A stretch of DNA of 64,000 bases, from positions 60,586 to 124,585 of the IMG/VR virus record IMGVR_UViG_3300042453_004661, one strand, 5' to 3'. The DNA comes from a virus. Shown here piece by piece: positions 2 to 28,843 of the stretch (position 1 is its first letter; each line of letters starts with the position of its first letter). A program made the position numbers and the translations under genes. A model generated the notes under the pieces. That model was not told the origin of the DNA, made no database searches, and was given only the letters and a program-made list of their open reading frames with translations.

Positions 2-1237
2 CGGGAAGGCTGGAGAGCATCCGATAGCCCAACAGAAATGCCAGAACACTCGAGGGAATACTGGGAAGGAAGAGCAAAACCCACTATCACACAAATGAGG
101 GCCAGTAAAGGAACTGGAAGGCAGGCCGGAGATATTGTTAAGCTCGGGTCTCTTGATGCATTTAGTGACAGGATTCAAAAATACCCACAGGCCCATAGAT
201 ATATTGCAGATCTAGTTGCTCAGCATGGTGGGGATACCCAAAAGATCGTATCCCAGATGATGGCCGATAGATCAAATGGAAAACTCCCCGATGATCATCC
301 AATGCAAATTGGCGTAGGCCTTGGATCTAAGACTTCACGATTTGCCGTATCAATGATGGGCGGAGGCCAATCTGTTGTCCCTGATACCCATTTTGTAAGG
401 CACATATTTGGACTTGATTCAAATACGGATTCAGATACAATCCACTATCTCAAGAATGTTTTGTGGAAATACAAAAATCATCATATTTTGAACTCATTGG
501 ATCAATTTTACAGAGAAAATCATCCTGCCGTAGATTTTGTCAAGAATGCATACTTTGGCGGTAAGGATGATCCTCATTCGGTATTTCCGGCATTCTGGCT
601 ACACTGGCTAGGCATTTCTCCGCACGAAAGAGAACAAGGGATTGGCAAGCCAGAAGGGGCCAAAAACATTAGCGATCATACTCCTTACTTCGACACCGCA
701 AACGAGATCCTTGATAGGCATGGGCTTGGAAATATTATTACCAAGTCCGAAGACGAGGAAAGACCACTGGTTCATAGAACTGCAAGTGCAGTTCATGAAA
801 TTGCCGAGAAGCTCGGAACATCTTTTGCTTCTATGATTTACTACTCCCATATCGTTCCTAAGCTTTTGGGAGAAACAACAGAAGATCATCATACGCATGC
901 GATAGATGTAAATAAAGCCAAAAAAGTTCTTAAGCTTGCTAAGAGCCTGCTTATGGAAAAAATTGGTCAAATGACTCACAATACCCAGCCACTCTCTGTT
1001 GGGCATGATGTTTTTCAAAAAGAACTAGAATCTATCATGGGCGGATTCTCTGTTGACAACGGAGGACTTAGGTCAATGAATGACAAGAAAAAGTCTGAAG
1101 ATCGTTCAAATTCATTGAGTCAAGTTCCCAAAAAACACAGAAAGAAATTTGAAAAAGCGATGGACGAGGCCAAAAAGAAAGACAGCGTGTATGGCAGGCT
1201 CGTAATGCTTAAGTCCAAGATTAAGGATAAAAAGTAA
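2..1237 (+). CDS. HhH-GPD-like DNA glycosylase/AP-lyase-signature protein, 5' truncated
   Basis: The reading frame is open to the left edge, so the true start lies outside the window; an in-frame ATG occurs at base 38. Counting from that ATG, residues 92-118 match the core of endonuclease III-type glycosylases: a hairpin-like GVGLGSKTS with Lys98, then VVPDTH with Asp116. The Lys-Asp spacing is 18 residues, the spacing known for the catalytic Lys120/Asp138 pair of E. coli Nth. The preceding HGGDTQKI stretch and a later Trp/His-rich segment (FWLHW) also fit that fold. No four-cysteine Fe-S loop is present. The C-terminus (about 340-399) is Lys-rich. It directly precedes virion genes with a 2-nt gap. 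Base-excision activity is inferred from the motif only; a purely structural virion role is possible. Confidence 0.5.
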   Translation, partial: REGWRASDSPTEMPEHSREYWEGRAKPTITQMRASKGTGRQAGDIVKLGSLDAFSDRIQKYPQAHRYIADLVAQHGGDTQKIVSQMMADRSNGKLPDDHPMQIGVGLGSKTSRFAVSMMGGGQSVVPDTHFVRHIFGLDSNTDSDTIHYLKNVLWKYKNHHILNSLDQFYRENHPAVDFVKNAYFGGKDDPHSVFPAFWLHWLGISPHEREQGIGKPEGAKNISDHTPYFDTANEILDRHGLGNIITKSEDEERPLVHRTASAVHEIAEKLGTSFASMIYYSHIVPKLLGETTEDHHTHAIDVNKAKKVLKLAKSLLMEKIGQMTHNTQPLSVGHDVFQKELESIMGGFSVDNGGLRSMNDKKKSEDRSNSLSQVPKKHRKKFEKAMDEAKKKDSVYGRLVMLKSKIKDKK

Positions 1238-1239
1238 AT

Positions 1240-3459
1240 ATGCCAGTAATCACGGTTGCATCAGTAACGCCAGCCACGATAACAGTTCCAGCTACTTCTC
1301 CATTTGCTGTAGGGCCAGATGCTATTGTGATTAAAGATCAATTCATGACTTACGAGTCGTATAATTCAGCCACTGGCTTATTTGTTGGCGTAGTGCCAAA
1401 TCCAATTAGCCTTGGCGTAACTGTTGGCGATGTGATTGAGCAGGCTACCCAGGAGCAAAAAAGAGTCAATTCAGCCTATGAAAGACTGCTATCAAAGTTT
1501 CCTAAGAGATACCAAGTCAAGGGCACAAAGTATCTAAAAGCTTTATTGCAGGCATTGGCTAAGGGCGACGGGTTTATCGATTATGAGGTTGAGGCCGTCA
1601 GGGATAATCTTCTTGTGATGTCAGCAATCGGTAAATATCTAGATCGATTGGCTGGGCAATACGGCGTAGTCCGTGGCCAAGGTAGTGGCGTTCAAGATCC
1701 TGACTTCAGAAAGCTTGTTCCATTGGTCGGGATGAGCCCAAAGCAGATCACAAATATCCTAAATAAAGTTATCGATGTTGTATATGGTCCTTTTGCTTCT
1801 CATGCAAATGTTACCTGTTCTTTACCGGAGCCATACAATTTTCAAAACGGATGGAGCTTGCTACTTGTCGTTGACGGCAGAGAGACCCAGGTTAAGTTTC
1901 AGTCTTCAGACTTTGCTTCTATATCAAATGCATCTGCCGAAGAAGTCGCCAATATCATTACCCAAAGAACAGATGGAAAAGTTACGGGCCAAGTTATTAC
2001 GAATGTAAGGACTGGGGAAAAGTTTGTCAACATCAGGACATCAACGGTAGGCGCCCAGGGCTTTATCCGGGTGTTGGGTGGGGAATGCCAAAGCAAGATG
2101 AGGTTTCCAATAATTCGCCCCACCATCATGAGTAGTGCGGTATGGAATGTCGTCCGGGTTGGTGGAACAGACGAAGTCGAATTCCAGCTAGTTTCTGGTC
2201 TTTCTCCTGCCATGAAAAATGCTGGTGTTCAAGCTGGAGACTATGTCACGATCAGGCCTGATTCCGGATTCAATGTTGCAAACGCAGGAAGCTTTGAAGT
2301 AACCTACGCCGACAACAATGTATTCAGAGTCAAAAACCCTACCGGAGTTCCAGAGTCTGGGATCACGAATGTAAATATGGATGATTTTACATTCTTCCAG
2401 TCTAGAACAGCCAATATTCTCCTTTCAAGCAGGCCTGCCACAGTTATCGAGACTGCTCCGAATGAGCTAACTGTTATCTTGCCAGTGACTTCGCCTCTCG
2501 TTAAAAGGACGCTGAAGGGATCTCACCATTTGCGTGGCGGTCTAACAAATTGCATCTCAGTCACATCCAATACTGTTGAGCTTGGATCTTCTGCAGAGTT
2601 TCCTGCAGACGGAGGTTGCGTCCAGCCTACATCTTCCAGGAATACGGCAAGAGGTATTGTTTCAGCAAAAACATCTACCACGATTAGCCTTATTTCAGCA
2701 GAAGGGTGGCCGACCCGTGGCGCTGTGTGGTCCCAGGTAACTGGTGATTTTTATTACTATTCTGGAATATCTGGCAACACACTTACTGGCGTATCTCCAT
2801 CTCCGCCTAACTCAATCATCAGCGGAGAGTGCAAGTATTCGGAAAGATATTCTTTTACAGCGATTTCAGGCAACACTTTGACAGGCGTCTATCCTGATCC
2901 TGTTAATCTACTTAATAGAGAGGTAACACAAGGATCGTCCCAGCTCGTAGATGAATACGAGGGATCTTTCTTGTATGATCTTTCTGCTCCTTTTATCGGC
3001 GCCTCAGAAAACACAACAATATCAGAACAAATTGATCAGGGATCTGCCAGGACCGTAATCCAGGTAGGAAATGTATCTGACTTCCCGGACAAAGGATATA
3101 TTGTGTTCCGCTTTGGTGAAGACGGGCAAGAAGGCCCGGTTCGGTATCAGGCAAAAGTAGGAACAGAAGCTTTAGTTATTGACCCTGGTCATGTGTTCAA
3201 AAATACACACCGATCTGGGGCAGGAATAAGACTCGTAAGGAAAATCGGGTCATACATACCTAGAGCAACGGGAGATGATCTAGCTGTCTATCTGACATCT
3301 ACATCCCCTGCTAGGGATCTAATCGCAAATTACCTAAGAAGCATCGCTGCATCCGGAGTAAAAGTAAAGTTTGAAATTAGAATTCCTGACCAAAAATGGG
3401 AAGTATTGCCTAATCTATACACGACCATTCCGCTCGACAATAGCCTAGTTCCACCCTAA
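1240..3459 (+). CDS. virion (tail/baseplate-type) structural protein, 739 aa
   Basis: No named family is recognised. The protein is Ser/Thr/Gly/Val-rich and predicted beta, typical of tail or baseplate-associated proteins. Residues about 65-185 are a helical region (VNSAYERLLSKFPKRYQ... and LVGMSPKQITNILNKVIDVVYG). Around it are copies of a short beta module of the form TYxSYxxATGLFxGVxPxP followed by a Val-Gly-Asp: clear at residues 33-65, and degenerate near 500-560 (ISGNTLTGVSPSP, ISGNTLTGVYPDP). The same module recurs in the next gene. It lies between the HhH-GPD-like gene and a 1,067-aa fibre gene in one co-directional block. Virion location is inferred from composition and neighbours. 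Confidence 0.55.
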   Translation: MPVITVASVTPATITVPATSPFAVGPDAIVIKDQFMTYESYNSATGLFVGVVPNPISLGVTVGDVIEQATQEQKRVNSAYERLLSKFPKRYQVKGTKYLKALLQALAKGDGFIDYEVEAVRDNLLVMSAIGKYLDRLAGQYGVVRGQGSGVQDPDFRKLVPLVGMSPKQITNILNKVIDVVYGPFASHANVTCSLPEPYNFQNGWSLLLVVDGRETQVKFQSSDFASISNASAEEVANIITQRTDGKVTGQVITNVRTGEKFVNIRTSTVGAQGFIRVLGGECQSKMRFPIIRPTIMSSAVWNVVRVGGTDEVEFQLVSGLSPAMKNAGVQAGDYVTIRPDSGFNVANAGSFEVTYADNNVFRVKNPTGVPESGITNVNMDDFTFFQSRTANILLSSRPATVIETAPNELTVILPVTSPLVKRTLKGSHHLRGGLTNCISVTSNTVELGSSAEFPADGGCVQPTSSRNTARGIVSAKTSTTISLISAEGWPTRGAVWSQVTGDFYYYSGISGNTLTGVSPSPPNSIISGECKYSERYSFTAISGNTLTGVYPDPVNLLNREVTQGSSQLVDEYEGSFLYDLSAPFIGASENTTISEQIDQGSARTVIQVGNVSDFPDKGYIVFRFGEDGQEGPVRYQAKVGTEALVIDPGHVFKNTHRSGAGIRLVRKIGSYIPRATGDDLAVYLTSTSPARDLIANYLRSIAASGVKVKFEIRIPDQKWEVLPNLYTTIPLDNSLVPP

Positions 3460-3478
3460 CCTTAAAGAGGTAAAATAG
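3459..3478 (+). promoter_or_regulatory. 20-nt repeated element, candidate late promoter (copy 1)
   Basis: ACCTTAAAGAGGTAAAATAG begins on the last base of the upstream stop codon and is repeated perfectly at 63487-63506, also just before a virion gene. It contains a small inverted repeat (ACCT/AGGT) followed by a TAAAAT -10-like box. No good TTGACA-type -35 is seen. Sixteen bases lie between it and the next ATG, with an AGGAG ribosome site between them. Confidence 0.5.
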
Positions 3479-3494
3479 TAACAGGAGTAATTAA

Positions 3495-6400
3495 ATGGCC
3501 GTACTACAACGGGTCGCCCTATACCCCAACGAACGATTAGACATACCCGATGCAAGATCTCTTGAAGGATTCAGTTTAAATGACTGGAGATTCTTCATTA
3601 AGGGGATCATGGCTGGCCAGTCCTATGTCATTCAGGGATTCGAAGTATCCAACTATGCTAATATCTTCTTGGTCCCGGGATTCAAGCTTAGGCTAAATAC
3701 GGTTGCCCTGCTCCACCCAAATGCAACTAGCCAGGCTGCAGGATTTTACATTACAAACGGGCAAGAGCCTGATGCTACCGTTACGCTATCTTCAAATGCC
3801 GTCAATTATGTCGAAGCTGACATGACGACACTGTCCGGCACTCCTGATGTCCGGGCATTTTGGGACCCAGGCGCAAACTCTGGAGCTGGCGGAGAATATA
3901 CTGATACGATTGATACCGTTATCAATCTTCAACTTACGGTTGCGTCGAATGTTTCTGGATTTACTTCTGGAAAAATCCCTCTATATAAAGTTACCACAAA
4001 CACATCCGGTGTGGTAACTTCTTTAACAGATTGCCGTCCAATGTTTTTCAGACTTGGTACTGGCGGAAACTCTCCAGATCCTTTTGCTTCCTATGCATGG
4101 CCTAGTTTGCCTAGCGCATCCAAAGCTCGTCAAGAGGGTGCAGTAACAGTTACGACTGCCACCACAAGCAATGCGCCATTCCAGGGTGGCGATAAGAACA
4201 TCAAGACACTCAAGGAGTGGATGGATGCGGTCATGACCGTCATCCGTGAGATCAAGGGCACTACCTATTGGTACACTGGCACTACCGGATCTCCTCTTGT
4301 TAATGCATACCAGAACGCAGCTCTCACTATCCTCCTTGGCGGTACGCTTAAACAGCTAGGCACAACAAGGATTGTAAAGAATGTCAGCTCATCAACTGTT
4401 TCGGTTGATATCGGATCTATATTTGATGTAGGCCCCAGCTCTTTTGTTCACAACACTACGACATACACCTATAGCTCATTCTCTTCTGCTACTGGGGTAT
4501 TCAGTGGGGTTAGTCCGAATCCCGTTGGAAGCATTACCGTAGGAGATGCTATTCGTCAAGGTCCATATGGACACCTCCAGCTTCAAGATGGATCGACCGT
4601 CTATAGGATGGGTCGTACATTTAACAATTCAATAGCTGCATTCAGCGATATTGATTTGTCCCCTTTGTCCCAGAGAAATCTATATATTATTCTTCCGGTT
4701 GCCGATGAAAATGCCGTACATGGATTCGGTGACGATGGCGCAACTCCCGTTAAGCCAAAGCTTGTAACTGCTGTCTCTTCAATTGATATCAATGTCGGTA
4801 CTGGCGGTAACTATGCCTCTGGCGGTGGCAAGATCCTTATCCGTGGCACAGAATTTACATACACATCTTATGTTCCTGCCACTGGGCTCTTTTCTGGAAT
4901 TAGTCCAGATCCTACTGGTGTTGTTCAAGTTGGCGATACAGCATACGCCTGCCCGAGTGGAGGCGTGGGGTATTTGCATGTATCTTCAAGGGATCAGATT
5001 CCTGGCCAAACAGGCGCAATATCCGAAGGAGCAGAAAGGGTATTTTGGCTCGCTGTTTATGACGGCGTAAGCACTATCAGGACTCGAGACGGTGCAGTTC
5101 AGCCGGGAGAGGTCATCCAGGTAGGTAACAACGATACCACAAATATCATTCAGTATATTGGATCTACTGGTCCATCCGATAACTTCCCGGTTTATAATGT
5201 CTTGTCGATTCCAAACGGAACAGACCTTACAAATGCAATTAGGGTTGCATTTGAAATTATCGAGACACCAATCTACGACGAGACTGTTACGGTCCCGATT
5301 GAAGATGTCGCTCTTTACTGGCCTGCTTCTGCACCAGTCGATGGTCCGGTTATCGATGCAACAAACAAGGCATTCTCTCAAGGCTTTACATCTTTAGGCA
5401 ACTTTAGTTTGGGGTCTATCAAGTTCAAGGCTCGAGAAGTAGGCGCACCAGATGCTTTTTATATTTGCGAAATTAGGGATAATATTGGCGGATCTCCTGG
5501 CCCAACAGTATTGGGAACATCTACTCTATTCCAGGCAGGAACCCTTACAGCTCCATTTAGCGATGTTACTTTCTATTTCCCCACCCCGGTCTCCGTAGCT
5601 AACGGTCAAATTTACCATGCAGTAGTAAAGGTCCAGGGGTCGCCTCTTGTTCTTGACGCATCTAACTACAGTATTTTTGGGGTCGGCGCATCTAATCCAT
5701 ATGCTGGTGGCCAAGCCTTCAGTTCTACAGATGCCGGGGTAACTTTTGCTCCAGATACATGGGACCTACATTTTTATGCCCAAGACGATTCTGGCTTGGC
5801 TCCGCTAGACATTACAGGCCTCCCCCTCAATACCAAGACTCTTTTGCCGGGATCATACAATGTTGGCACAGACGCTCTTGTCGTTTATGTCGATGGCGTA
5901 CTCATGGAGCCAAATCAAGATTACACAGAATTTAGTACAAACTCCATCAGATGGCTTAAACCTGTTACTGCTGGAGGAAGGATTAGGTTCAGGATTGGAA
6001 ATATCGGCGGAGCAATGACTTCGCTCTCCAGTGGCTCCCTACAGAGTGCCTATGACTCTGGAAGCAATATCAATACTACTCCAGGAAATCCTGTCACGAT
6101 CTTGGCAGCTACAGGAAAAGCCTTGTCCGTTCAAGGAGATATGGAAGTTACTGGTCTAATAGATCCGACTGGTATTCAATTTACCCCAGTTCCTTCTAAT
6201 CCATTCCCTACAGGCCAGATCGGTATCTGGGTCGATTCAGACGATGAGCTATTGCGCTATACAAAACAAACTGGTGAAGTTGTAAATGTAGGCGAAGTTA
6301 TTGAAGATCTCGGCGGTAACTCACAGCATCTTTCGAGAGTTAAGCTTAATAATTCTGGCGCCACTATCCCTTCTGGCTCAGCCGTATGCATTAAGTCTGA

Positions 6401-6698
6401 TGGGTCAATAAGCCTTGCTGACGCAGATGATCCTGCTAATGCTATCTTTTTTGGGATTACAGCAGAATCAATTCCTCACGGATCTTCTGGGAAAGTAATT
6501 TACAATGGAGTTGTAGCAGGAATATTGACCGGATTAGGGCTTACTAGCGGTACATACCTGTGGCTATCTACCACTCCAGGCCAGCTATCTACTTCGCCCC
6601 CCACGACTCAAGGCTCTTACCTTGTAATTGTTGGAATAATTGACGGAAATGATCTAATTATACAAACTCAGGTAAGTGGACAGGTAAACGGATCTTGA
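3495..6698 (+). CDS. large tail-fibre-type virion protein, 1,067 aa
   Basis: A long beta-rich protein with several recognisable modules. The ATGVFSGVSPNP / ATGLFSGISPDP element seen in the preceding gene occurs twice (about residues 330-350 and 455-475). A carbohydrate-binding-like beta-sandwich (about 640-770) ends in DTWDLHFYAQ and resembles a segment of the 970-aa protein. Next is a VYVDGVLMEPNQDYTEFS module (about 795-835) that exists as a free-standing gene at 10131. The Gly-rich C-terminal domain resembles virion decoration or trimerising domains (LNNSGATIPSGSAV... GITAES). An AGGAG site lies 8 nt before the ATG. Fibre or tail-surface function is inferred; no enzymatic motif is seen. 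Confidence 0.6.
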   Translation: MAVLQRVALYPNERLDIPDARSLEGFSLNDWRFFIKGIMAGQSYVIQGFEVSNYANIFLVPGFKLRLNTVALLHPNATSQAAGFYITNGQEPDATVTLSSNAVNYVEADMTTLSGTPDVRAFWDPGANSGAGGEYTDTIDTVINLQLTVASNVSGFTSGKIPLYKVTTNTSGVVTSLTDCRPMFFRLGTGGNSPDPFASYAWPSLPSASKARQEGAVTVTTATTSNAPFQGGDKNIKTLKEWMDAVMTVIREIKGTTYWYTGTTGSPLVNAYQNAALTILLGGTLKQLGTTRIVKNVSSSTVSVDIGSIFDVGPSSFVHNTTTYTYSSFSSATGVFSGVSPNPVGSITVGDAIRQGPYGHLQLQDGSTVYRMGRTFNNSIAAFSDIDLSPLSQRNLYIILPVADENAVHGFGDDGATPVKPKLVTAVSSIDINVGTGGNYASGGGKILIRGTEFTYTSYVPATGLFSGISPDPTGVVQVGDTAYACPSGGVGYLHVSSRDQIPGQTGAISEGAERVFWLAVYDGVSTIRTRDGAVQPGEVIQVGNNDTTNIIQYIGSTGPSDNFPVYNVLSIPNGTDLTNAIRVAFEIIETPIYDETVTVPIEDVALYWPASAPVDGPVIDATNKAFSQGFTSLGNFSLGSIKFKAREVGAPDAFYICEIRDNIGGSPGPTVLGTSTLFQAGTLTAPFSDVTFYFPTPVSVANGQIYHAVVKVQGSPLVLDASNYSIFGVGASNPYAGGQAFSSTDAGVTFAPDTWDLHFYAQDDSGLAPLDITGLPLNTKTLLPGSYNVGTDALVVYVDGVLMEPNQDYTEFSTNSIRWLKPVTAGGRIRFRIGNIGGAMTSLSSGSLQSAYDSGSNINTTPGNPVTILAATGKALSVQGDMEVTGLIDPTGIQFTPVPSNPFPTGQIGIWVDSDDELLRYTKQTGEVVNVGEVIEDLGGNSQHLSRVKLNNSGATIPSGSAVCIKSDGSISLADADDPANAIFFGITAESIPHGSSGKVIYNGVVAGILTGLGLTSGTYLWLSTTPGQLSTSPPTTQGSYLVIVGIIDGNDLIIQTQVSGQVNGS

Positions 6699-13334: not shown

Positions 13335-14597
13335 GTGCCTATTATTACTAACCTTAGCCTAGGCGGTGGAATTACTGTTGCCAACACCTTTTCTACCCCG
13401 GTAAATGTATCTAGCACTATATCTATTCCTGATGATAAAGATAGGCTAGTTTATGTGACTGGCAATGCATCAAGGTCTTCTGGAAACAGCCCAGCAGGTG
13501 CTGATACATCCTGGCGATCTATCTGTTGGTCCCCAGAAAGAAGATTGTTTGTCGCCGTTGGCCGAAGTGAAGACACAGGGGCCGCTCGATGTGCAACCTC
13601 ACCTGATGGAATTACCTGGACAGCCCGAAGCCCGCAAAGTGGTTCTTGGTGGTCCGTCTGCTGGTCCCCAGAAAGAGGATTATTTGTTGCTGTTGCGGGA
13701 ACCGGAACCACTCAAAGAGTCATGACTTCACCGGATGGCATTACTTGGACCGCTAGAACAACTCCTGGCACAAATGAATGGTATTCCGTATGCTGGTCTC
13801 CGGAAAGAGGCTTATTTGTAGCCGTTGCAGCCTCTGGGACAAATGGCGTAATGACTTCTCCTGATGGAATTACATGGACAGCCGGGACATCACCGAGCGA
13901 AAGCTGGCGTTCTGTCTGCTGGTCCCCAGAAAGAGGCTTATTTGTTGCCGTTGCACCTGGATTGCTTTCCAACACAGTAATGACTTCGCCAGATGGGATT
14001 ACCTGGACTGCTAGGGCGCCTGCTGTGGGTAATGAATGGAATTGCGTTTGTTGGTCTCCTGAAAGAGGATTGTTTGTTGCGGTGGCTAAAATAGGAGGGG
14101 CATCACCTCAAAGGGCTATGACTTCACCGGATGGAATTAACTGGACTGCTAGGACAACCCCCGCAAGTAGATATTTTGATTCTGTATGCTGGTCTCCGGA
14201 GAGGGGTTTATTTATAGCTGTTGGAGAATTTAACCATCTAATGACTTCTTCCGATGGAATTACTTGGACATTAAGAAGTTTGATTATTACTTCTGGGTAT
14301 GCCATAGTATGGTCTTCTCAATTAGGAAGATTTGTTTCGTCTGGTTTTTCAACTACATTTGACTTAATCAATCTTGCTCAATTTAATGCCTCTCCAATAC
14401 AAAACGGCCAAAAAGAAGGTCAAAGACTTATTTTGGTGGGAACAGACAATTATAATGCTCCAGAACTAAGATCTATTGGAAATATTGATGCAATTAAAAA
14501 TTCAAATGATCCTGTATTTGCAATAGCCTCTCAAGATCAGTACGAGCTTAGATGGGATAGTGTTAATTCTAAATGGGTTAGAAGAGGAGATGTCTAA
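13335..14597 (+). CDS. seven-bladed beta-propeller-like adhesin A, 420 aa
   Basis: This is the first of three tandem paralogues. A shared N-terminal cap of about 45 residues (ITNLSLGGGITVANTFSTPV) is followed by seven blades of roughly 40 residues. Each begins with a [IV]CWSPER-type strand; six are followed by MTSPDGITWT and the seventh (IVWSSQLGRFV) is degenerate. A shared C-terminal domain (PIQNGQKEGQRLILVGTD... WDSVNSKWVRRG) follows. Seven repeats is the commonest propeller number. The start is a GTG one base after the upstream TAG, with a GGAGAGG site before it; both sister genes use ATG. It is probably a receptor-binding or tail-surface protein. No sialidase Asp-box (SxDxGxTW) catalytic set is evident. 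Confidence 0.6.
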   Translation: MPIITNLSLGGGITVANTFSTPVNVSSTISIPDDKDRLVYVTGNASRSSGNSPAGADTSWRSICWSPERRLFVAVGRSEDTGAARCATSPDGITWTARSPQSGSWWSVCWSPERGLFVAVAGTGTTQRVMTSPDGITWTARTTPGTNEWYSVCWSPERGLFVAVAASGTNGVMTSPDGITWTAGTSPSESWRSVCWSPERGLFVAVAPGLLSNTVMTSPDGITWTARAPAVGNEWNCVCWSPERGLFVAVAKIGGASPQRAMTSPDGINWTARTTPASRYFDSVCWSPERGLFIAVGEFNHLMTSSDGITWTLRSLIITSGYAIVWSSQLGRFVSSGFSTTFDLINLAQFNASPIQNGQKEGQRLILVGTDNYNAPELRSIGNIDAIKNSNDPVFAIASQDQYELRWDSVNSKWVRRGDV

Positions 14598-15856
14598 TGC
14601 CTGTCGTCACTAACCTTAGCTTAGGCGGTGGAATTACTGTTGCTAATACCTTTTCTACCCCAGTAAATGTATCTAGCACCATCTCTATTCCTGATGATAA
14701 AGATAGAATGGTATATGTGACTGGGACGAGTAGTTGGGTCAACAGGACGCATGGGGTTGCGGGGACTAATTGGAGATCTATATGCTGGTCTCCAGAAAGA
14801 GCAATATTTGTAGCCGTTGGCGGAAATGCAGTAATGACTTCTCCGGATGGAATTACTTGGACGGCCAGGACATCTGCTTCAAGCGTTAATTGGCAATCCA
14901 TCTGCTGGTCCCCAGAAAGAGGCCTGTTTGTAGCTGTTGGGAATAATGCTGTTATGACTTCACCAGATGGCATTACATGGACATCCAGAACGGCTGCAGC
15001 AAATAATCAATGGTATTCTATTTGCTGGTCAAAAGAAAGAGGTTTATTTGTAGCTGTTGCATGGAGCGGTACGGGTAACAGAGTTATGACTTCGCCAGAT
15101 GGAATTGCCTGGACATCTAGAGCATCTGCTTTAGATAATGATTGGCTTTCCGTATGCTGGTCTCCAGAAAGAGGTTTATTTGTAGCTGTTGCAAGCTCTG
15201 GCACAGGCAACAGGGTTATGACTTCGCCAGATGGAATTGCTTGGACATCTAGGGCATCTGCAAATAATACTTATTCATGGTATTCTGTCTGCTGGTCTGC
15301 AGAAAGAGGTCTATTTGTTGCGGTCGGTAGTTTTTTTGATCTTACAGACCCAGTATCTACGGTAATGACTTCACTAGATGGGATTACTTGGACACAAAGG
15401 GCATCGTCAGCAAGCGTTGGGCTGGAGTATATATGCTGGTCTTCTGAAATGGGAATTTTTGTTGCCGTAGCTCCTGATGGTAATTTTGTTATTACATCAT
15501 CAGACGGGATTACTTGGACACAAAGAAACTTTGGTTCATCGTCTACAGTCAATAGGCGCTCTATTTGTTGGTCTCCACAATTGGGGAAATTTATAATTAT
15601 TGTTTTTGAAAATATAGTTACGACATTTGATCTTTTTCAATTTAATGCCTTTCCAATACAGAATGGTCAAAAAGAAGGCCAAACACTAATTCTTGTGGGC
15701 ACAGATGATTATAATGCTCCAGAAATAAAATCTATTGGGAATCTTGATTCGCTTAAGAATGCAAATGACAAGTGCATTCCCATTTCCTCACAAAAAGTAT
15801 ACTCTTTTGAATGGGATAGTGTCAACTTAAAATGGATAAGAAGGAGTAATGGATAA
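14597..15856 (+). CDS. seven-bladed beta-propeller-like adhesin B, 419 aa
   Basis: Second paralogue, starting in a TAATG overlap with the first and preceded by AGAGGAGAT. It has the same cap, seven CWSxE blades and C-terminal domain. Blade openings are NWRSICWSPERAIF, NWQSICWSPERGLF, QWYSICWSKERGLF, DWLSVCWSPERGLF, WYSVCWSAERGLF, LEYICWSSEMGIF and RRSICWSPQLGKF. Only six SPDGITWT-type strands follow them. The N-terminal GTSSWVNRT resembles the missing seventh strand, so N- and C-termini may share the last blade, as is common in propellers. Surface-exposed loops between blades are the most divergent part relative to the sisters. The role is inferred to be host-surface binding. Confidence 0.6.
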   Translation: MPVVTNLSLGGGITVANTFSTPVNVSSTISIPDDKDRMVYVTGTSSWVNRTHGVAGTNWRSICWSPERAIFVAVGGNAVMTSPDGITWTARTSASSVNWQSICWSPERGLFVAVGNNAVMTSPDGITWTSRTAAANNQWYSICWSKERGLFVAVAWSGTGNRVMTSPDGIAWTSRASALDNDWLSVCWSPERGLFVAVASSGTGNRVMTSPDGIAWTSRASANNTYSWYSVCWSAERGLFVAVGSFFDLTDPVSTVMTSLDGITWTQRASSASVGLEYICWSSEMGIFVAVAPDGNFVITSSDGITWTQRNFGSSSTVNRRSICWSPQLGKFIIIVFENIVTTFDLFQFNAFPIQNGQKEGQTLILVGTDDYNAPEIKSIGNLDSLKNANDKCIPISSQKVYSFEWDSVNLKWIRRSNG

Positions 15857-17157
15857 TGCCTATTATTACTAATCTTAGTTTAGGCGGTGGAGAAGTTACT
15901 GTTGCCAACACCTTTTCTACCCCAGTAAATGTATCTAGCACTATATCTATTCCTGATGATAAAGATAGAATGGTATATGTGACCGGAACAAGTAGTTGGG
16001 TATCCAGAAGCACTCCCACAAGCAACAACTTTAGATCTGTTTGCTGGTCCCCAGAAAGAGGTTTGTTTGTTGCTGTTTCAAATACTGGAACAGTAAGCGA
16101 TAAAGTAATGACTTCACCGGATGGAATTACTTGGACATCTAGATCGGTTCCTGCATCTAACAATTCATGGTTTTCTGTATGCTGGTCTCCGGAAAGAGGC
16201 TTATTTGTTGCTGTTGCAAATTCTGGCGCATCGTTTGATATTGTAATGACTTCACCAGATGGAATTACTTGGACCTCTAGGTCGTCTGCTCAAAATAATA
16301 ACTTTAATTCTGTCTGCTGGTCCCCAGAAAGAGGACTGTTTGTTGCTGTTGCAGCAACGGGTTCGGCAGGAGGAGTAATAACCTCACCAGATGGAATTAG
16401 CTGGACACTAAGATTTGCTTCAGCCCTAAATGCATGGCAATCAGTCTGCTGGTCCCCAGAAAGAGGACTGTTTGTTGCTGTTTCGAGTAGCGGTACGGCC
16501 AACAGAGTTATGACTTCGCCAGATGGAATTACTTGGACATCGAGAAATACCACGGGACTAGATAGCCTTTGGAGATTTGTCTGTTGGTCTCCAGAAAGAG
16601 GTTTATTTGTAGCCGTTGCAAGTAGTGGGACAAATCAAATAATGACTTCGCCAGATGGGATTACTTGGACGGCCAGGACTGCGCCCAATACAAATACATG
16701 GTATTCCGTATGCTGGTCTTCTGAAATGGGAATTTTTGTTGCCGTTGCGGCTGGGACAAATGGTGTAATGACTTCGCCAGATGGGATTACTTGGACGGCC
16801 AGAGCTTCTCTTGCATCAAGTCAAGATTGGCGTTGCGTATGCTGGTCTCCTCAGTTAGGAGAATTTGTTGCGACAGCCCTTACCGGAACGCTTAATCGAG
16901 TCATGACACTAGATCTTCCTCAGTTAAATTCTACTCCAATACAAAATGGGCAAAAAGAAAGTCAAAAGCTTATTTTGGTAGGAACGGATGGCTATAATGC
17001 CCCAGAAGTAAAAACGATTGGCAATATTGAATCAAGAAAAAACTCAAATGATAAATGCCTAGTCTTGGGCTCCCAAAAAAGATTTGAATTTAGATGGGAT
17101 AGTGTTAATTCTAGATGGGTTAGGCAAAAGCCTAAAAAGAACAAAACTGGATATTAA
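15856..17157 (+). CDS. seven-bladed beta-propeller-like adhesin C, 433 aa
   Basis: Third paralogue, again in a TAATG overlap and with an AAGGAG site. Seven blade openings are visible (NFRSVCWSPERGLF to DWRCVCWSPQLGEF), with six MTSPDGITWT-type strands and an N-terminal SSWVSRS that reads like the closing strand of the ring. The C-terminus ends in a Lys-rich extension (KPKKNKTGY) absent from the sisters. Blade 6 shares the CWSSEMGIF variant with blade 6 of paralogue B, and blade 7 the PQLG variant, so blade position is conserved between genes. This suggests whole-gene duplication rather than random blade amplification. Likely a tail-surface protein. Confidence 0.6.
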   Translation: MPIITNLSLGGGEVTVANTFSTPVNVSSTISIPDDKDRMVYVTGTSSWVSRSTPTSNNFRSVCWSPERGLFVAVSNTGTVSDKVMTSPDGITWTSRSVPASNNSWFSVCWSPERGLFVAVANSGASFDIVMTSPDGITWTSRSSAQNNNFNSVCWSPERGLFVAVAATGSAGGVITSPDGISWTLRFASALNAWQSVCWSPERGLFVAVSSSGTANRVMTSPDGITWTSRNTTGLDSLWRFVCWSPERGLFVAVASSGTNQIMTSPDGITWTARTAPNTNTWYSVCWSSEMGIFVAVAAGTNGVMTSPDGITWTARASLASSQDWRCVCWSPQLGEFVATALTGTLNRVMTLDLPQLNSTPIQNGQKESQKLILVGTDGYNAPEVKTIGNIESRKNSNDKCLVLGSQKRFEFRWDSVNSRWVRQKPKKNKTGY

Positions 17158-17163
17158 GGATTT

Positions 17164-17952
17164 ATGCCAAGCATAAGACAGATTGAAGTCATAGGAAGGC
17201 TTACCAAGGTATCGTCAAACACGATATCTCTTTCTGCATCAAGAATAAATATTGGAGCATTTCAGTATTATACTCCATCCCTCCTTTGCAACACAAGCGT
17301 CATAGGGGCTGGAGGAGTAGACTCTGCGATTCAGTCATGGAAACTTTATTATGTCTATGTCGTAGTCACTAGCCTTAACAGGACAATCGAACTCATAGCT
17401 AGCACATCGCCTTCTGCCCCGGCAGGGTTTACTGCTTTTAGGCTTGTAGGGTATTTTGATACTATTTCATCGGGTGCGGTTAATGGAGTGGCGAATTCAA
17501 TTGAGGGTGGGGTTGGCGATATCAAGTCTGCCCACATGACCGAAGTAGAATTTGTCAATGCAAATGGCCCAGGATGGATCTTGGCCGATGGCAGAAATGT
17601 AGCCGGAAGTGCGTGGGCCACAGCTAATAGCGCAACCAACATTCCTGACGCTAGGGGTATGGTATTACGGGGCAAAAATAATGGAAGAGCCGATGGAAAT
17701 CAGAACCCAGCAGGGGATAAAGTTCTTGGTGAATTTGAGGGAGATCAAATGCAGGGGCATGTTCATGGGACAAATATTCATGATGATGCCGTAGGTGGGA
17801 GCGGAAGATCTTTTGGGCAAATGCAGTTTGATAATCCAAATCAAATTTTTACAACTGTTCCAATTAACGATGGAACAAATGGAAATCCCAGAACCGGACC
17901 TGAAACCCGCATGAAAAATATCACCGTAAACTATTTCATAAAAGTCAATTAA
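17164..17952 (+). CDS. tail-collar-domain fibre protein, 262 aa
   Basis: The N-terminal half (residues about 1-105) is a head module beginning MPSIR and ending APAGFTAFRLVGYFD, shared with the genes at 25584 and 26443. The C-terminal half is a phage tail-collar domain: MTEVEFVNANGPGWILADGRNV, IPDARGMVLRGKNNGRADG, NQNPAGDKVLGEFEGDQMQGHVHG and the terminal ETRMKNITVNYFIKVN. Collar domains normally form trimeric tips or needle-like fibre ends and carry metal-binding His residues in the HxH motif seen here (HVHG). It directly follows the propeller genes, with an AAGGA site. Good family match; the attachment target is unknown. Confidence 0.7.
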   Translation: MPSIRQIEVIGRLTKVSSNTISLSASRINIGAFQYYTPSLLCNTSVIGAGGVDSAIQSWKLYYVYVVVTSLNRTIELIASTSPSAPAGFTAFRLVGYFDTISSGAVNGVANSIEGGVGDIKSAHMTEVEFVNANGPGWILADGRNVAGSAWATANSATNIPDARGMVLRGKNNGRADGNQNPAGDKVLGEFEGDQMQGHVHGTNIHDDAVGGSGRSFGQMQFDNPNQIFTTVPINDGTNGNPRTGPETRMKNITVNYFIKVN

Positions 17953-21279: not shown

Positions 21280-23463
21280 ATGTCTCAAGGACCAAAGAGC
21301 TTATATGATGATCACCTTCAAACTGTCACAGAGATAGTTGAAGACCTAGGTCTTGTTAGCGGAACTGTTGGGCCTCCTGGCCCTGTTGGTCCCGAAGGTC
21401 CCGAGGGCAAGTCTGCATATGAAGTTGCAATCAGCCCTCCAAATAATTTTCAAGGAACCGAAGCGCAATGGCTAGAAAGCCTAAAAGGCGAAAAAGGCGA
21501 TGAAGGCAAGTCTGCTTATCAGATTGCGATCAGTCCCCCTCATAATTTTCAAGGAACCGAAGCGCAATGGCTTGAAAGCCTTGAAGGCAAGTCTGCGTAT
21601 GAAGTTGCAGAGTCTATTGGAGCGCCAAATACAGGCACTGAAGCTGAATGGATTGCAAGCTTAAAAGGCGAAAAAGGCGACAAAGGCGACAAGGGAGACC
21701 AGGGCGAAATCGGACCTATCGGACCCCAGGGTCCCGAAGGCGGTCCTCCCGGTCCAGAAGGCCCTGCGGGCCCTGCTGGAGAAGATGGTCTTTCTGCATA
21801 TGACATTGCCTTTGCTCTTGATTCATCAATTGGAGGCGAATCTCAATGGATTGCCAGCTTAAAAGGCGAAAAGGGGGACAAGGGCGACCAAGGCTTTATG
21901 GGGCCCGCTGGCCCGGATGGGCTCTCTGCATATCAAATTGCACAACAACCTCCTCATAATTTTGTAGGAAGTGAAGCAGACTGGTTGGAAAGCCTTAAAG
22001 GAGAAGCGGGGTCGGATGGACTTTCTGCATATCAAGTCGCATTGGACAATGGGTTTGAAGGAGATTCAGTCCAGTGGCTTGAAAGCTTAAAAGGGCCAAA
22101 AGGCGACCAGGGTGAAAAAGGCGACAAAGGCGACCAGGGCTTTGCGGGGCCTGCTGGGGCAGAAGGACCTTCTGCATATGACATTGCCTTTGCTCTTGAT
22201 TCATCAATTGGAGGCGAAGCCCAGTGGCTAGAAAGTTTAAAAGGACCAAAAGGCGATGAAGGCGATATAGGCCCTGCCGGGCCAAAAGGCGACCAGGGCG
22301 ATCCAGGACCAGTGGGGCCAGTAGGTCCAGCCGGGCCAGCAGGGCCAGCAGGAGAAAAAGGCGATCAGGGCGATCCTGGACTTTCTGCATATCAAGTTGC
22401 AGTAGCAAATGGCGATCCAAATACAGAAACCGTATCGCAATGGCTTGAAAGCTTAAAGGGTGAGCAGGGTGAAAAAGGCGACAAGGGCGATCCAGGAATT
22501 CAGGGATTGCCCGGAAGCGTCGGCCCTGCCGGACCAGCAGGAGAAAAAGGCGATCCAGGCGATGACGGGCTTTCTGCATATGAGATTGCAATCAGCCCCC
22601 CAAATAATTTTCAAGGGACTGAGGCCGAATGGCTTGCAAGTCTTAAAGGCGAAAAAGGTGATAAGGGTGACGATGGAGATGTAGGCCCAGCGGGTCCAGT
22701 CGGGCCACAGGGTTTGCCTGGAAATGTTGGACCAGCAGGGCCAGCAGGAGAAAAAGGCGATCAGGGAGACCCGGGACTTTCTGCATATCAGATTGCGCAA
22801 CAGTTTCCTTATAATTTTTCGGGAACCGAGGCAGAATGGCTTGCAAGCCTAAAAGGCGAGCAAGGCGATGTGGGGCCAGCCGGACCAGCGGGGCCAGCCG
22901 GAGAAGTTGGGCCAGCGGGACCAGCGGGAGAAAAAGGCGACCAGGGCGATCCAGGTCAGCCATTTACAATAGCAAAAATATATGCATCCCTAGGCGATCT
23001 TCAGGCTGATACTTTTCCTTCAGGAATATTGCCGGGTCAGTTTGCAATCGTATCTTCAAATGTAAACGATCCCGACAATGCCAAGCTTTATAGATGGGAT
23101 GGGATTCAATATACATTTATTGTAGACATGAGCGGAGCCCCCGGGTCTGGCGGAGGATCTGGCTCTTCCATGTCCGTAAATGGATTGATTGAAGATCCAA
23201 AAGTAAAAAGCTATGTGTTGATTCAGTCTGCTCCATCTTCTGGAACAATAACCTCGTTAAAAGCTCAGACATCAAGCGGTAGCTGTACTGTCCAAATTTA
23301 CAAAAACAGTGTGGCGCAATCTGGATCTACACTTGTTGTTGATAACCTAGTAGAGGCGTCTTTGGTATTGTCTATTGCTGTAGCAGAAGATGACAATATT
23401 GCCTTAGTCGTAACGGCTACTACATTTGCTGAAGACTTGTCTTTTAGCTTAAAAATCATATGA
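21280..23463 (+). CDS. collagen-like tail fibre with ten SAY...WLESLKG modules, 727 aa
   Basis: Long Gly-X-Y tracts ([34 protein letters not shown]) alternate with ten copies of an approximately 25-residue spacer of the form G[KLP]SAY[EDQ][IV]A...QWLESLKG. This architecture is known from phage collagen-like fibres, where the tracts form rigid triple helices. The first 30 residues are a non-collagenous attachment segment ([18 protein letters not shown]). After the last tract (about residue 560) come a [15 protein letters not shown] domain and a small C-terminal beta domain, likely the trimerising tip. The gene ends in a 4-nt ATGA overlap with the LamG-type fibre gene. Confidence 0.8.
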
Positions 23464-25583: not shown

Positions 25584-26441
25584 ATGCCAAGCATAAAAGG
25601 GCCGGATAGCCCTATCAATTTAATCACAATAGTCTCTGCCAATACAGTTCAGGTTCCTGCATCTGTATCTAGTCCATTGGTCATGACTATTGCTGGCCAG
25701 CAATATAGGATTGTGTCCAACTTACTGCTAGACACTACTAAGGTAGGAGCTGGCGGTCTTGATGTCGGACCAGTATCCGCAAGCGCCTATTCCATACACC
25801 TGGTAGTTCACGAAAGAACACTTGCTCTTGTCGCTTCTTTATCTTCTTCAGCCCCTTCTGGATTTACTGCTTTTAGGTTAATAGGCCGAATGATTGTCAT
25901 GAATGTTAATGGCACATTTAGGGTCGTATTAGCAAATACTTCACTAAACATATCTCTTTCTGACTTAAATCCAATAGGCATGGTCGTGTCGAGCATGCTG
26001 ACCGAGGATCAATTTCAAAGACTAAATGGATCTGGATGGATTTTAATGGATGGCAGAAGCGTGACCGGATCTACCTATGCTAATATTACAGGTAGCAATA
26101 ATATTCCTGACGCTAGAGGTCTTGTTCTTCGCGGAAAGAATAACGGAAGAGGAGATGGCGCTCAGAATCCAGATGGAGACTTTGATTTGGGATTGTATCA
26201 AGGAGATACATATGCAAGCCACAAGCATGCAATTACACTATCTCATGAAGCAAACGGAGGCAAAGACGGCTCCGGATGGCCTGCCGTAGACTTTAGCGGT
26301 CCTATAGTTTTTCACAATGAATTTCAAGCTAGTGGAGCAGAATCGTTCAATAATGGAGTAGGAAACCCCTTGCATAATAGCGGTGGAAACGAAACCCGCA
26401 TGAGAAACATAACAGTAAATCATTTCATAAGGATCAACTAA
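25584..26441 (+). CDS. tail-collar-domain fibre protein, 285 aa
   Basis: Same two-part build as the 262-aa protein. The MPSIKGPDS head module (to about residue 115, ending APSGFTAFRLIGRMIV) is joined to a collar domain (SGWILMDGRSVTGSTYA, IPDARGLVLRGKNNGRGDG, QNPDGDFDLGLYQGDTYASHKHA, NETRMRNITVNHFIRIN). HKHA is the collar metal-ligand motif. The segment between HKHA and NETRM is unique to this copy (AVDFSGPIVFHNEFQASG) and likely forms the variable tip. A GAGG site precedes the ATG. Confidence 0.7.
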   Translation: MPSIKGPDSPINLITIVSANTVQVPASVSSPLVMTIAGQQYRIVSNLLLDTTKVGAGGLDVGPVSASAYSIHLVVHERTLALVASLSSSAPSGFTAFRLIGRMIVMNVNGTFRVVLANTSLNISLSDLNPIGMVVSSMLTEDQFQRLNGSGWILMDGRSVTGSTYANITGSNNIPDARGLVLRGKNNGRGDGAQNPDGDFDLGLYQGDTYASHKHAITLSHEANGGKDGSGWPAVDFSGPIVFHNEFQASGAESFNNGVGNPLHNSGGNETRMRNITVNHFIRIN

Positions 26442-27774: not shown

Positions 27775-28275
27775 ATGCCAGCCACACCAAAATTAAATAT
27801 TACTAGATCCCTAACTCAAGGCGATTTAAATCCTATTGGCATGGTTGTATCAAGCATGCTAACTGAAGCTCAATTTCAAAACCTAAATGGCACTGGATGG
27901 GTATTGATGGATGGAAGATCTGTGGCTGGGTCTGCCTATGCATCGGTGACAGGCAATGCCTCAATTCCTGATGCTAGAGGCATGGTATTGCGTGGTAAAA
28001 ACAACTCGAGAGCTGACGGAAATCAAAACCCAGCAGGAGATAGGGCGCTAGGCGAATTCGAAGGCGATCAAATGCAGGGGCATCATCATTCATATTTTGG
28101 TGCAAATAATACGGGCACTGGCTCTAATTCTTTTACAATTCAAAATAATATATTTGGGCCATTCACTGGAGCAGTATCTTCTCCAACAAATGATGGCACT
28201 AACGGACCCCCTCGCACCGGAAATGAAACTCGAATGAAAAATATAACACTCAACCATTTCATAAGGATCAACTAA
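27775..28275 (+). CDS. short tail-collar protein, 166 aa
   Basis: A collar domain with only about 17 residues in front of it (MPATPKLNITRSLTQGD). All collar landmarks are present: GTGWVLMDGRSVAGSAYA, IPDARGMVLRGKNNSRADG, QNPAGDRALGEFEGDQMQGHHHS and NETRMKNITLNHFIRIN. The head module of the longer relatives is absent. It may therefore be an exchangeable tip, or bind through the short N-terminus shared with the next gene. The AAGGAG site is strong. Confidence 0.65.
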   Translation: MPATPKLNITRSLTQGDLNPIGMVVSSMLTEAQFQNLNGTGWVLMDGRSVAGSAYASVTGNASIPDARGMVLRGKNNSRADGNQNPAGDRALGEFEGDQMQGHHHSYFGANNTGTGSNSFTIQNNIFGPFTGAVSSPTNDGTNGPPRTGNETRMKNITLNHFIRIN

Positions 28276-28276
28276 T

Positions 28277-28843
28277 ATGCCAGCCACACCAAGACTTTCA
28301 GTATCAGGATCAGGAGCTTCCCAGTCTCTTTCTGTGGGATCATTTACCGTAAAAACATCGGACCTAAACCCCGTAGGCATGGTTGTGTCAAGCATGCTTA
28401 CTGAAGCTCAGTTTCAGGCACAGAATGGCACTGGATGGGTATTGATGGATGGAAGAAATGTGTCGGGGTCTGCCTATGCCACCATTACCGGAAGCACTAC
28501 AGTCCCCGACGCTAGAGGCATGATTCTTCGTGGTAAGAATAATGGAAGGTCCGATGGAAGCCAAAATCCAGATGGCGACTCAAGTTTAGGCGCTTATCAA
28601 GGGGACAATTTCGGAAGCCATAGACATAACTATGGTCCAGATGGCGGAACTGATGGAACGCACAATAGGCAAGTCGTTTTTAATAGCTCTCCAACTGGTG
28701 GATCTGGTTCTTCTCCAATTGGATTTGGCCAGGCGTTTAATGGTGGTGGAGGATCGGGCCACTGGATGGGAATTTACAACAGCGGCGGAAACGAAACTCG
28801 TATGAGAAACATAACCGTCAACCACTTCATCAAGATCAACTAA
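28277..28843 (+). CDS. short tail-collar protein, 188 aa
   Basis: Nearest in design to the preceding 166-aa protein: the same MPATPxL start, a slightly longer Ser-rich linker, and a complete collar (GTGWVLMDGRNVSGSAYA, VPDARGMILRGKNNGRSDG, QNPDGDSSLGAYQGDNFGSHRHN, NETRMRNITVNHFIKIN). The insert between the HRHN motif and NETRM is Gly-rich and differs from the sisters. It starts 2 nt after the previous stop and is the last fibre gene of the block. Confidence 0.65.
   Translation: MPATPRLSVSGSGASQSLSVGSFTVKTSDLNPVGMVVSSMLTEAQFQAQNGTGWVLMDGRNVSGSAYATITGSTTVPDARGMILRGKNNGRSDGSQNPDGDSSLGAYQGDNFGSHRHNYGPDGGTDGTHNRQVVFNSSPTGGSGSSPIGFGQAFNGGGGSGHWMGIYNSGGNETRMRNITVNHFIKIN

What the first reader, a model, noticed from the sequence alone, without database searches (positions are those of the whole stretch)
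13335..17157. Three tandem seven-bladed propeller paralogues with shared caps and ends
Each protein has exactly seven CWS strands and six SPDGITWT strands. The N-terminal SSWVSRS in paralogues B and C resembles the missing seventh strand, which fits closure of the ring by the N-terminus. Position-specific variants (SSEMG in blade 6, PQLG in blade 7) are conserved between B and C, so the genes arose by whole-gene duplication. Near-identical DNA at the 5' ends and repeated interior strings give a built-in route to swap blades and loops. They are candidates for a family of exchangeable receptor-binding proteins.
Basis: partly seen in the sequence, partly recalled or inferred. Interest (0 to 1): 0.65.

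Follow-up and report, generated by a model that had tools for sequence, protein, structure and literature searches.

The report
Three variable-faced propeller phage fibre genes
A tailed phage carries three side-by-side genes for ring-shaped, seven-bladed proteins, probably tail fibres; across the relatives examined, the rings stay almost constant except for a few positions on one face that change fast, as expected of a surface that recognises changing partners.

Summary
Three translationally coupled paralogues (13335-17157) each appear to be a closed seven-bladed beta-propeller; AlphaFold2 models of C and A show the N-terminus supplying the missing strand. Seven is also the commonest blade number in relatives: 67 of 91 propellers in viral contigs, 64 of 97 in genome contigs.

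The whole-gene-duplication claim holds only for the caps and blades 6-7. Interior blades 1-5 show no positional orthology between paralogues and share exact DNA tracts at mismatched positions: ten pairs of at least 25 nt against 0.4 expected. They look shuffled or homogenised.

The main new result: variation is confined to one face. In relatives with similar blades, positions 3 and 19 have pN/pS of 2-3.5 against 0.16-0.19 in the core, and near-orthologues differ preferentially there. Fungal HNWD WD40 receptors are selected in the same two loops. No reverse transcriptase was found, so a DGR is unlikely.

Most likely these are tail-fibre proteins whose variable face binds host surface ligands. 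They lie in a fibre module absent from the two core-gene relatives examined in full. Receptor binding is inferred. "Exchangeable" as a switch is unsupported: the three genes look co-expressed.

The parts
13335..14597 (+). Paralogue A, 420 aa, GTG start; seven-bladed propeller between short N- and C-caps
14597..15856 (+). Paralogue B, 419 aa; ATG overlaps A's stop (TAATG)
15856..17157 (+). Paralogue C, 433 aa; ATG overlaps B's stop (TAATG)
13335..13463 (+). N-cap of A (residues 1-43); DNA nearly the same in B (14597-14725) and C (15856-15987)
   Evidence: 78-83% identity at fourfold sites against 39-51% in blades 1-5
13467..13481 (+). Predicted ring-closing strand of A (residues 45-49)
   Evidence: AF2 strand 45-49, pLDDT about 61-70
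14729..14749 (+). Predicted ring-closing strand of B (SSWVNRT)
   Evidence: aligned with C; B was not modelled separately
15991..16011 (+). Ring-closing strand of C (SSWVSRS, residues 46-52)
   Evidence: AF2 strand 47-51 completes blade 7
13509..14375 (+). Seven blades of A
14768..15631 (+). Seven blades of B
16027..16914 (+). Seven blades of C
   Evidence: pLDDT over 90 for most of residues 50-350
14379..14594 (+). C-cap of A (PIQNGQKEGQ..LILVGTD..WDSVN.KW); copies at 15638-15853 (B) and 16921-17154 (C)
16312..16350 (+). 39-nt exact tract in blade C3, identical to 16444-16482 in blade C4
   Evidence: coordinates
16709..16745 (+). 37-nt exact tract in blade C6 shared with B6 (15432-15468); the second half of C6 shares another 37 nt with C5, so C6 looks like a mosaic

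Best explanation
The three genes encode tail-fibre proteins of a large tailed phage. Each displays a closed seven-bladed beta-propeller between short caps that may attach it to the virion or hold it in a small C-terminal domain. The propeller frame and one face (turns a-b and c-d) are kept constant. Residues in the d-a and b-c loops, on the opposite face, vary in identity and length and form a ring of binding residues. In relatives the changes at positions 3 and 19 are favoured by selection, most simply because that face binds variable host surface molecules. Homologous recombination between blades, within and between the three genes, plausibly reshuffles these residues on the conserved frame without a reverse transcriptase. 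Shown: repeat structure, closed-ring models, one-face variation, diversifying selection in relatives, and sharing of DNA between blades at mismatched positions. Inferred: virion location, receptor binding, and recombination as the means of diversification.
For: Closed seven-blade models of C and A. Foldseek: Ycf48 first in PDB, and phage proteins with chaperone, baseplate or tail-fibre names in BFVD. Exactly seven blades in 67 of 91 viral and 64 of 97 genome-contig propeller clusters. Highest entropy in the family at positions 3 and 19. Within proteins of similar blades, pN/pS at 3 and 19 is 2.0 (95% 1.6-2.7), rising to 3.5 (2.4-5.1) in the most uniform ones; core 0.16-0.19; 23 of 24 proteins agree. 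Between near-orthologues L055 and L058 non-synonymous changes hit positions 1, 3 and 19 at 5 of 21 codons against 13 of 275 elsewhere, p = 0.005. In the window's 18 regular blades no indel falls in the a-b or c-d turns, while b-c and d-a loops vary in length. Ten blade pairs share 25 nt or more exactly; synonymous-codon shuffles give 0.43, maximum 2. Blades 1-5 lack positional orthology. Neighbours are tail-fibre and collar proteins; the two core-gene relatives examined lack the module. In relative L014 a propeller interrupts a Sipho_Gp37 tail protein.
Against: No binding data. Caps are modelled with low confidence (pLDDT mostly under 50 in C, 34-66 in A), so virion attachment is a guess. Variation among isolates of this phage is untested. 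The window's own blades are near synonymous saturation (pS 0.60), so selection is shown for relatives and only consistent here. The codon-shuffle null does not model common descent of blades; recent duplication of blades would also give shared tracts. Genome-contig relatives show the same variable positions, so the pattern may not be exclusive to phages.
Confidence: 0.62

Rival explanations
1. Virion adhesins or decoration proteins that bind environmental or generic surface glycans (biofilm, mucus, cell envelope) rather than the specific receptor; paralogues give multivalency.
For: Same fold and same variable face; related propellers occur in many genome contigs, where the partner need not be a phage receptor; three co-expressed copies fit a multivalent coat.
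Against: Diversifying selection at a few residues suits a partner that changes; neighbours are tail-fibre and collar genes.
Confidence: 0.22
2. Blade similarity reflects recent amplification of blades from single units plus whole-gene duplication, with no continuing recombination; loop variation is relaxed constraint.
For: New propellers arise by amplification of single blades in all major lineages (PMC9218822); adjacent blades are often most alike (B1-B2 78%, B3-B4 80%).
Against: Relaxed constraint gives pN/pS near 1, not 2-3.5. Half-blade mosaics such as C6, with its first half shared with B6 and its second with C5, point to recombination. N-caps are more alike at silent sites than the blades.
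Confidence: 0.25
3. Enzymes acting on surface polysaccharide (depolymerase or sialidase-like), as in phage endosialidases that use a propeller.
For: One relative (L022) carries a weak match to an endosialidase N-terminal domain; propellers are common in glycan-active enzymes.
Against: Invariant columns across 32 propellers are S, G, W and T only, at frame positions repeated in each blade; no conserved catalytic-type residue set stands out. The face varies instead of conserving a pocket.
Confidence: 0.06
4. A diversity-generating retroelement or an invertible/cassette switch diversifies the genes.
For: Variable fibre genes are classic DGR targets; the adjacent 17164-17952 protein has a weak Mtd second-domain match.
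Confidence: 0.02

Closest known systems
HNWD/NWD WD40 receptors of Podospora anserina (PMC1805685, PMC2873952)
   Same: Near-identical propeller repeats with concerted evolution within and between genes; positively selected codons in the d-a loop (pair around a conserved site) and the b-c turn; the spacing from codon 9 to codon 25 there equals that from position 3 to 19 here (16).
   Different: WD40 sequence family, fungal NLR proteins; here a different propeller family in a phage fibre module, with blade number held near seven. Works alike; not a member.
Ycf48 (PSII assembly) and the Asp-box propeller group
   Same: Seven-bladed fold; Ycf48 is the best PDB match (5ojr, E 3.9e-12); S-x-D-G-x-x-W repeats resemble Asp-boxes.
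   Different: Motif is one residue shorter than SxDxGxTW; 14-17% identity; no PSII link.
PhiKZ gp131C, phi11 RBP and PRD1 P2 propellers (as described in PMC4901313)
   Same: Beta-propellers in proposed phage host-recognition proteins; gp131C is seven-bladed, and the N-terminal strand closes the phi11 ring.
   Different: phi11 and PRD1 have five blades; gp131C was not among the 50 listed Foldseek matches; none was described there as a tandem, blade-sharing family.
Highly repetitive beta-propellers amplified from single blades (PMC9218822)
   Same: High blade-to-blade identity; ongoing amplification; viruses included in that survey.
   Different: That work does not, in the passages read, describe a phage family with selected top-face positions.
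WD40 top-face hotspots R1, R1-2, D-1 (PMC3419727)
   Same: Binding residues at the start of strand a (i and i+2) and beside the b-c turn, like positions 1, 3 and 19-20 here.
   Different: WD40 family with DHSW tetrad; analogy by fold position only.

Membership tests
Closed seven-bladed beta-propeller (fold) | Seven four-stranded blades, ring closed by N- and C-terminal strands in one blade | tested here: met
   AF2 models of C and A; B inferred from alignment
Asp-box propeller | SxDxGxTW motif | tested here: not met
   All repeats read SxDGxxW, one residue shorter
Asp-box propeller | Structural match to a known member | tested here: met
   Ycf48 ranks 1-3 in PDB Foldseek; TM-score by target about 0.7
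WD40 (PF00400) | Pfam score over gathering cut-off | tested here: not met
   15.6 and 14.2 bits for A and B against 27; C not listed
DUF6242 (PF19755) | Pfam score over gathering cut-off | tested here: not met
   24 and 19.8 bits for A and B against 29; C not listed
Phage receptor-binding protein | Encoded within a tail-fibre module | tested here: met
   Flanking collar/fibre and collagen-like genes
Phage receptor-binding protein | Present in the virion and binds host receptor | not testable with these tools
   needs proteomics and binding assays
DGR target | Linked reverse transcriptase and template repeat | tested here: not met
   No RVT_1 match in own record or 16 relatives' records; records may be fragments
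Diversifying binding propeller (HNWD-like mechanism) | pN/pS above 1 at top-face positions, strong constraint elsewhere | tested here: met
   In relatives; in the window's own genes only consistent (pS near saturation)
Diversifying binding propeller (HNWD-like mechanism) | Exchange of repeats between paralogues | tested here: inconclusive
   Shared tracts exceed the codon-shuffle null and positional orthology is lacking; no population data

The most novel reading that the evidence does not exclude
A widespread phage family of seven-bladed propellers serves as a reverse-transcriptase-free diversification scaffold: near-identical blades are recombination substrates, and two to four selected top-face residues per blade (about 14-28 per ring) are reshuffled to track host receptors, a phage counterpart of fungal HNWD receptors.
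Probability: 0.38. Interest if true: 0.75.

Novelty: new variant of a known kind. Interest (0 to 1): 0.56.

Why it matters
If right, phages and fungi independently arrived at the same solution: a repeat-built propeller in which almost every residue is fixed and a few surface positions per repeat vary under selection. It would give phages without a DGR a common way to diversify host binding, predict from sequence alone which residues decide specificity, and supply natural sets of recognition rings for study. The family is common: at least 452 viral-contig and 274 genome-contig stretches encode relatives, yet PHROGs gave the window's proteins only families of unknown function.

Tried and rejected
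DGR: rejected, no RT and wrong residue spectrum at variable sites. Phase-variable inversion or cassette switch: no long inverted repeats, overlapping coupled genes. MHC_II_beta Pfam hit over cut-off for C (E 4e-9): rejected as an artefact summed over Trp-rich repeats. Whole-gene duplication as sole origin: rejected for blades 1-5. C-cap relatives: none found in phage records or IMG/VR; only a weak match to fibre C-termini of relative G001 (E 0.34; HHalign P 1.5e-4 over 20 columns). The idea that the propeller is inserted in that domain has only p about 0.02 and stays a hypothesis. Collar-protein and C-cap searches for close relatives of the locus led nowhere. A regular-expression blade count was too strict and was replaced by a blade HMM.
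Full report
What is there. Three ORFs run head to tail at 13335-14597, 14597-15856 and 15856-17157. They are 63-67% identical to each other. B and C start inside the preceding stop (TAATG), A starts just after the upstream gene's stop, and each has a purine-rich Shine-Dalgarno-like sequence upstream. That makes co-transcription and coupled translation likely (inference). The window is part of a 124,585-base IMG/VR virus record, and no fourth copy exists in it. Each protein has a 43-44 aa N-cap, seven units of 40-48 aa and a C-cap of about 75 aa.

Fold. AlphaFold2 with a 32-sequence alignment gives, for C, seven blades at pLDDT mostly over 90. The strand at residues 47-51 (within SSWVSRS) supplies the fourth strand of blade 7. 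A gives the same topology with its closing strand at 45-49, less confidently. Caps are modelled poorly (pLDDT mostly under 50 in C, 34-66 in A). Foldseek finds Ycf48, a seven-bladed protein of the Asp-box group, first in the PDB; a virginiamycin B lyase gives TM 0.88 by target length. In BFVD the best hits are viral, mostly phage, proteins, including one with an intramolecular chaperone domain (52% identity), a baseplate wedge initiator and tail-fibre proteins. B was not modelled on its own.

Relatives. Counting blades with an HMM built from the window, 67 of 91 untruncated clusters among the viral loci have exactly seven, and several proteins hold multiples of seven. In genome contigs 64 of 97 have seven. 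Some clusters counted as six may have a divergent last blade, as A has. Seven is thus typical of the family, as a closed ring would require.

History of the three genes. Caps and blades 6-7 resemble their counterparts by position. Blades 1-5 do not: same-index similarity is no better than permuted (p 0.28, 0.82, 0.41 for A-B, A-C, B-C), and adjacent blades in one protein are often the most alike (B1-B2 78%, B3-B4 80%). Ten blade pairs share exact DNA of 25 nt or more, against a mean of 0.43 and maximum of 2 when synonymous codons are shuffled. Tracts join mismatched positions (C3-C4 39 nt, C5-C6 37, A3-C2 32, B3-C4 30), and C6 combines a B6-like first half with a C5-like second half. N-caps are 78-83% identical at fourfold sites against 39-51% in blades 1-5, which suggests recent homogenisation of the 5' ends or constraint on the DNA there. 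The null does not model descent of blades from one another, so recombination is likely but not proven. In two contigs that are 98-99% identical, L031 and L038, the same propeller differs by exactly one 126-nt blade between identical flanks; assembly collapse is not excluded.

Where variation falls. In the window's 18 regular blades there are no indels in the a-b turn (SPERG) or the c-d turn (SPDGI), while b-c and d-a loops vary in length and sequence. Over 472 blades the most variable positions are 3 (start of strand a, entropy 3.6 bits) and 19 (end of strand b, 3.8 bits). Comparing blades within a protein, pN at 3 and 19 exceeds overall pS in 23 of 24 proteins with median blade identity of 0.68 or more. 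The corrected ratio is 2.0 (1.6-2.7), and 3.5 (2.4-5.1) in the ten most uniform proteins; the core ratio is 0.16-0.19. Positions 1 (pN 0.47), 20 (0.40) and 37 (0.37) come next. Between near-orthologues L055 and L058, non-synonymous differences are enriched at positions 1, 3 and 19 (5 of 21 against 13 of 275, p = 0.005). Genome-contig relatives, whose prophage status was not tested, show the same positions with a weaker ratio of 1.5. The window's own blades are near synonymous saturation (pS 0.60), so the inference of selection rests on the relatives.

Genome context. Flanking genes give tail-fibre, collar and collagen-like matches. Two records related through DNA polymerase and terminase (G001, 157 kb; G002, 93 kb) share core genes and the virion genes at 1231-6695. 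Apart from one short match, they lack everything from about 6.8 to 30 kb, including the trio. The trio is therefore part of a lineage-specific fibre module. In L014 a related propeller interrupts a Sipho_Gp37 tail protein: its N-terminal piece matches profile 2-104 and its C-terminal piece 222-370. The window's C-cap resembles the C-terminal domain of G001's fibre proteins (GQ.LIL.GTD..N...WD..W), weakly, and the end of the N-cap may be the strand before it (p about 0.02). If so, the propeller is an insert in a small virion domain; this is only a hypothesis.

How it most likely works. The conserved frame presents a ring of variable residues at sites like the top-face hotspots of WD40 proteins: R1-2 and R1 at the start of strand a, and D-1 (PMC3419727). 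The fungal HNWD family shows the same logic: positively selected codons 7 and 9 flank a conserved site in the d-a loop, 25 and 27 lie in the b-c turn, with concerted evolution among repeats (PMC1805685). Position 3 to 19 here has the same 16-residue spacing as codons 9 to 25 there. I therefore propose a host-binding fibre propeller with diversifying top-face residues, reshuffled by recombination between blades. No RT was found, so a DGR is unlikely.

What remains open. Virion location, partner, variation among isolates, and whether blade shuffling is ongoing. Known phage propellers in proposed receptor-binding proteins (phi11, PRD1 P2, PhiKZ gp131C) are described in PMC4901313. Amplification of propellers from single blades is established (PMC9218822). 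The literature searches found no description of this phage family, but only open-licence papers were searched.

Noticed in passing
window 15856-17154: Pfam PF00969 (MHC class II beta) scores over its gathering cut-off (37.1 against 20.9 bits, E 4e-9) on paralogue C, an artefact of summing short Trp-rich repeats; automated annotation could mislabel such proteins.
   Followed up: partly
window 17164-17952, 25584-26441, 27775-28275, 28277-28843: Four further proteins match tail collar/fibre families; the first also has a weak Mtd second-domain match (E 2e-4). The fibre module seems built from several paralogue sets.
   Followed up: no
window 43165-44880: Phage-encoded GroEL-like chaperonin (PHROG E 5e-95), conserved in core-gene relatives G001 and G002.
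   Followed up: partly
window 21280-23463: Large collagen-like protein with a repeated SAY(E/Q)(V/I)A...EAQWL(E/A)SLKG module, in the fibre module.
   Followed up: no
L031 and L038: Two contigs 98-99% identical carry the same propeller with seven and six blades; the difference is exactly one 126-nt blade between identical flanks.
   Followed up: partly
window 13451-16553, minus strand: Long antisense ORFs run through the blade repeats and have matching antisense ORFs in relatives, a by-product of the repeat codons; they could be mis-annotated (phage B23 gp328 and gp329 are annotated antisense to its propeller, L085).
   Followed up: partly
L035, L039, L040, L043: Contigs of 119-247 kb encode giant proteins (over 3,200 aa in L035, with at least five propellers of seven blades in series).
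   Followed up: no
L095 (Paenibacillus cymbidii): Two neighbouring ORFs hold five propellers of seven blades; whether this is prophage was not tested.
   Followed up: no
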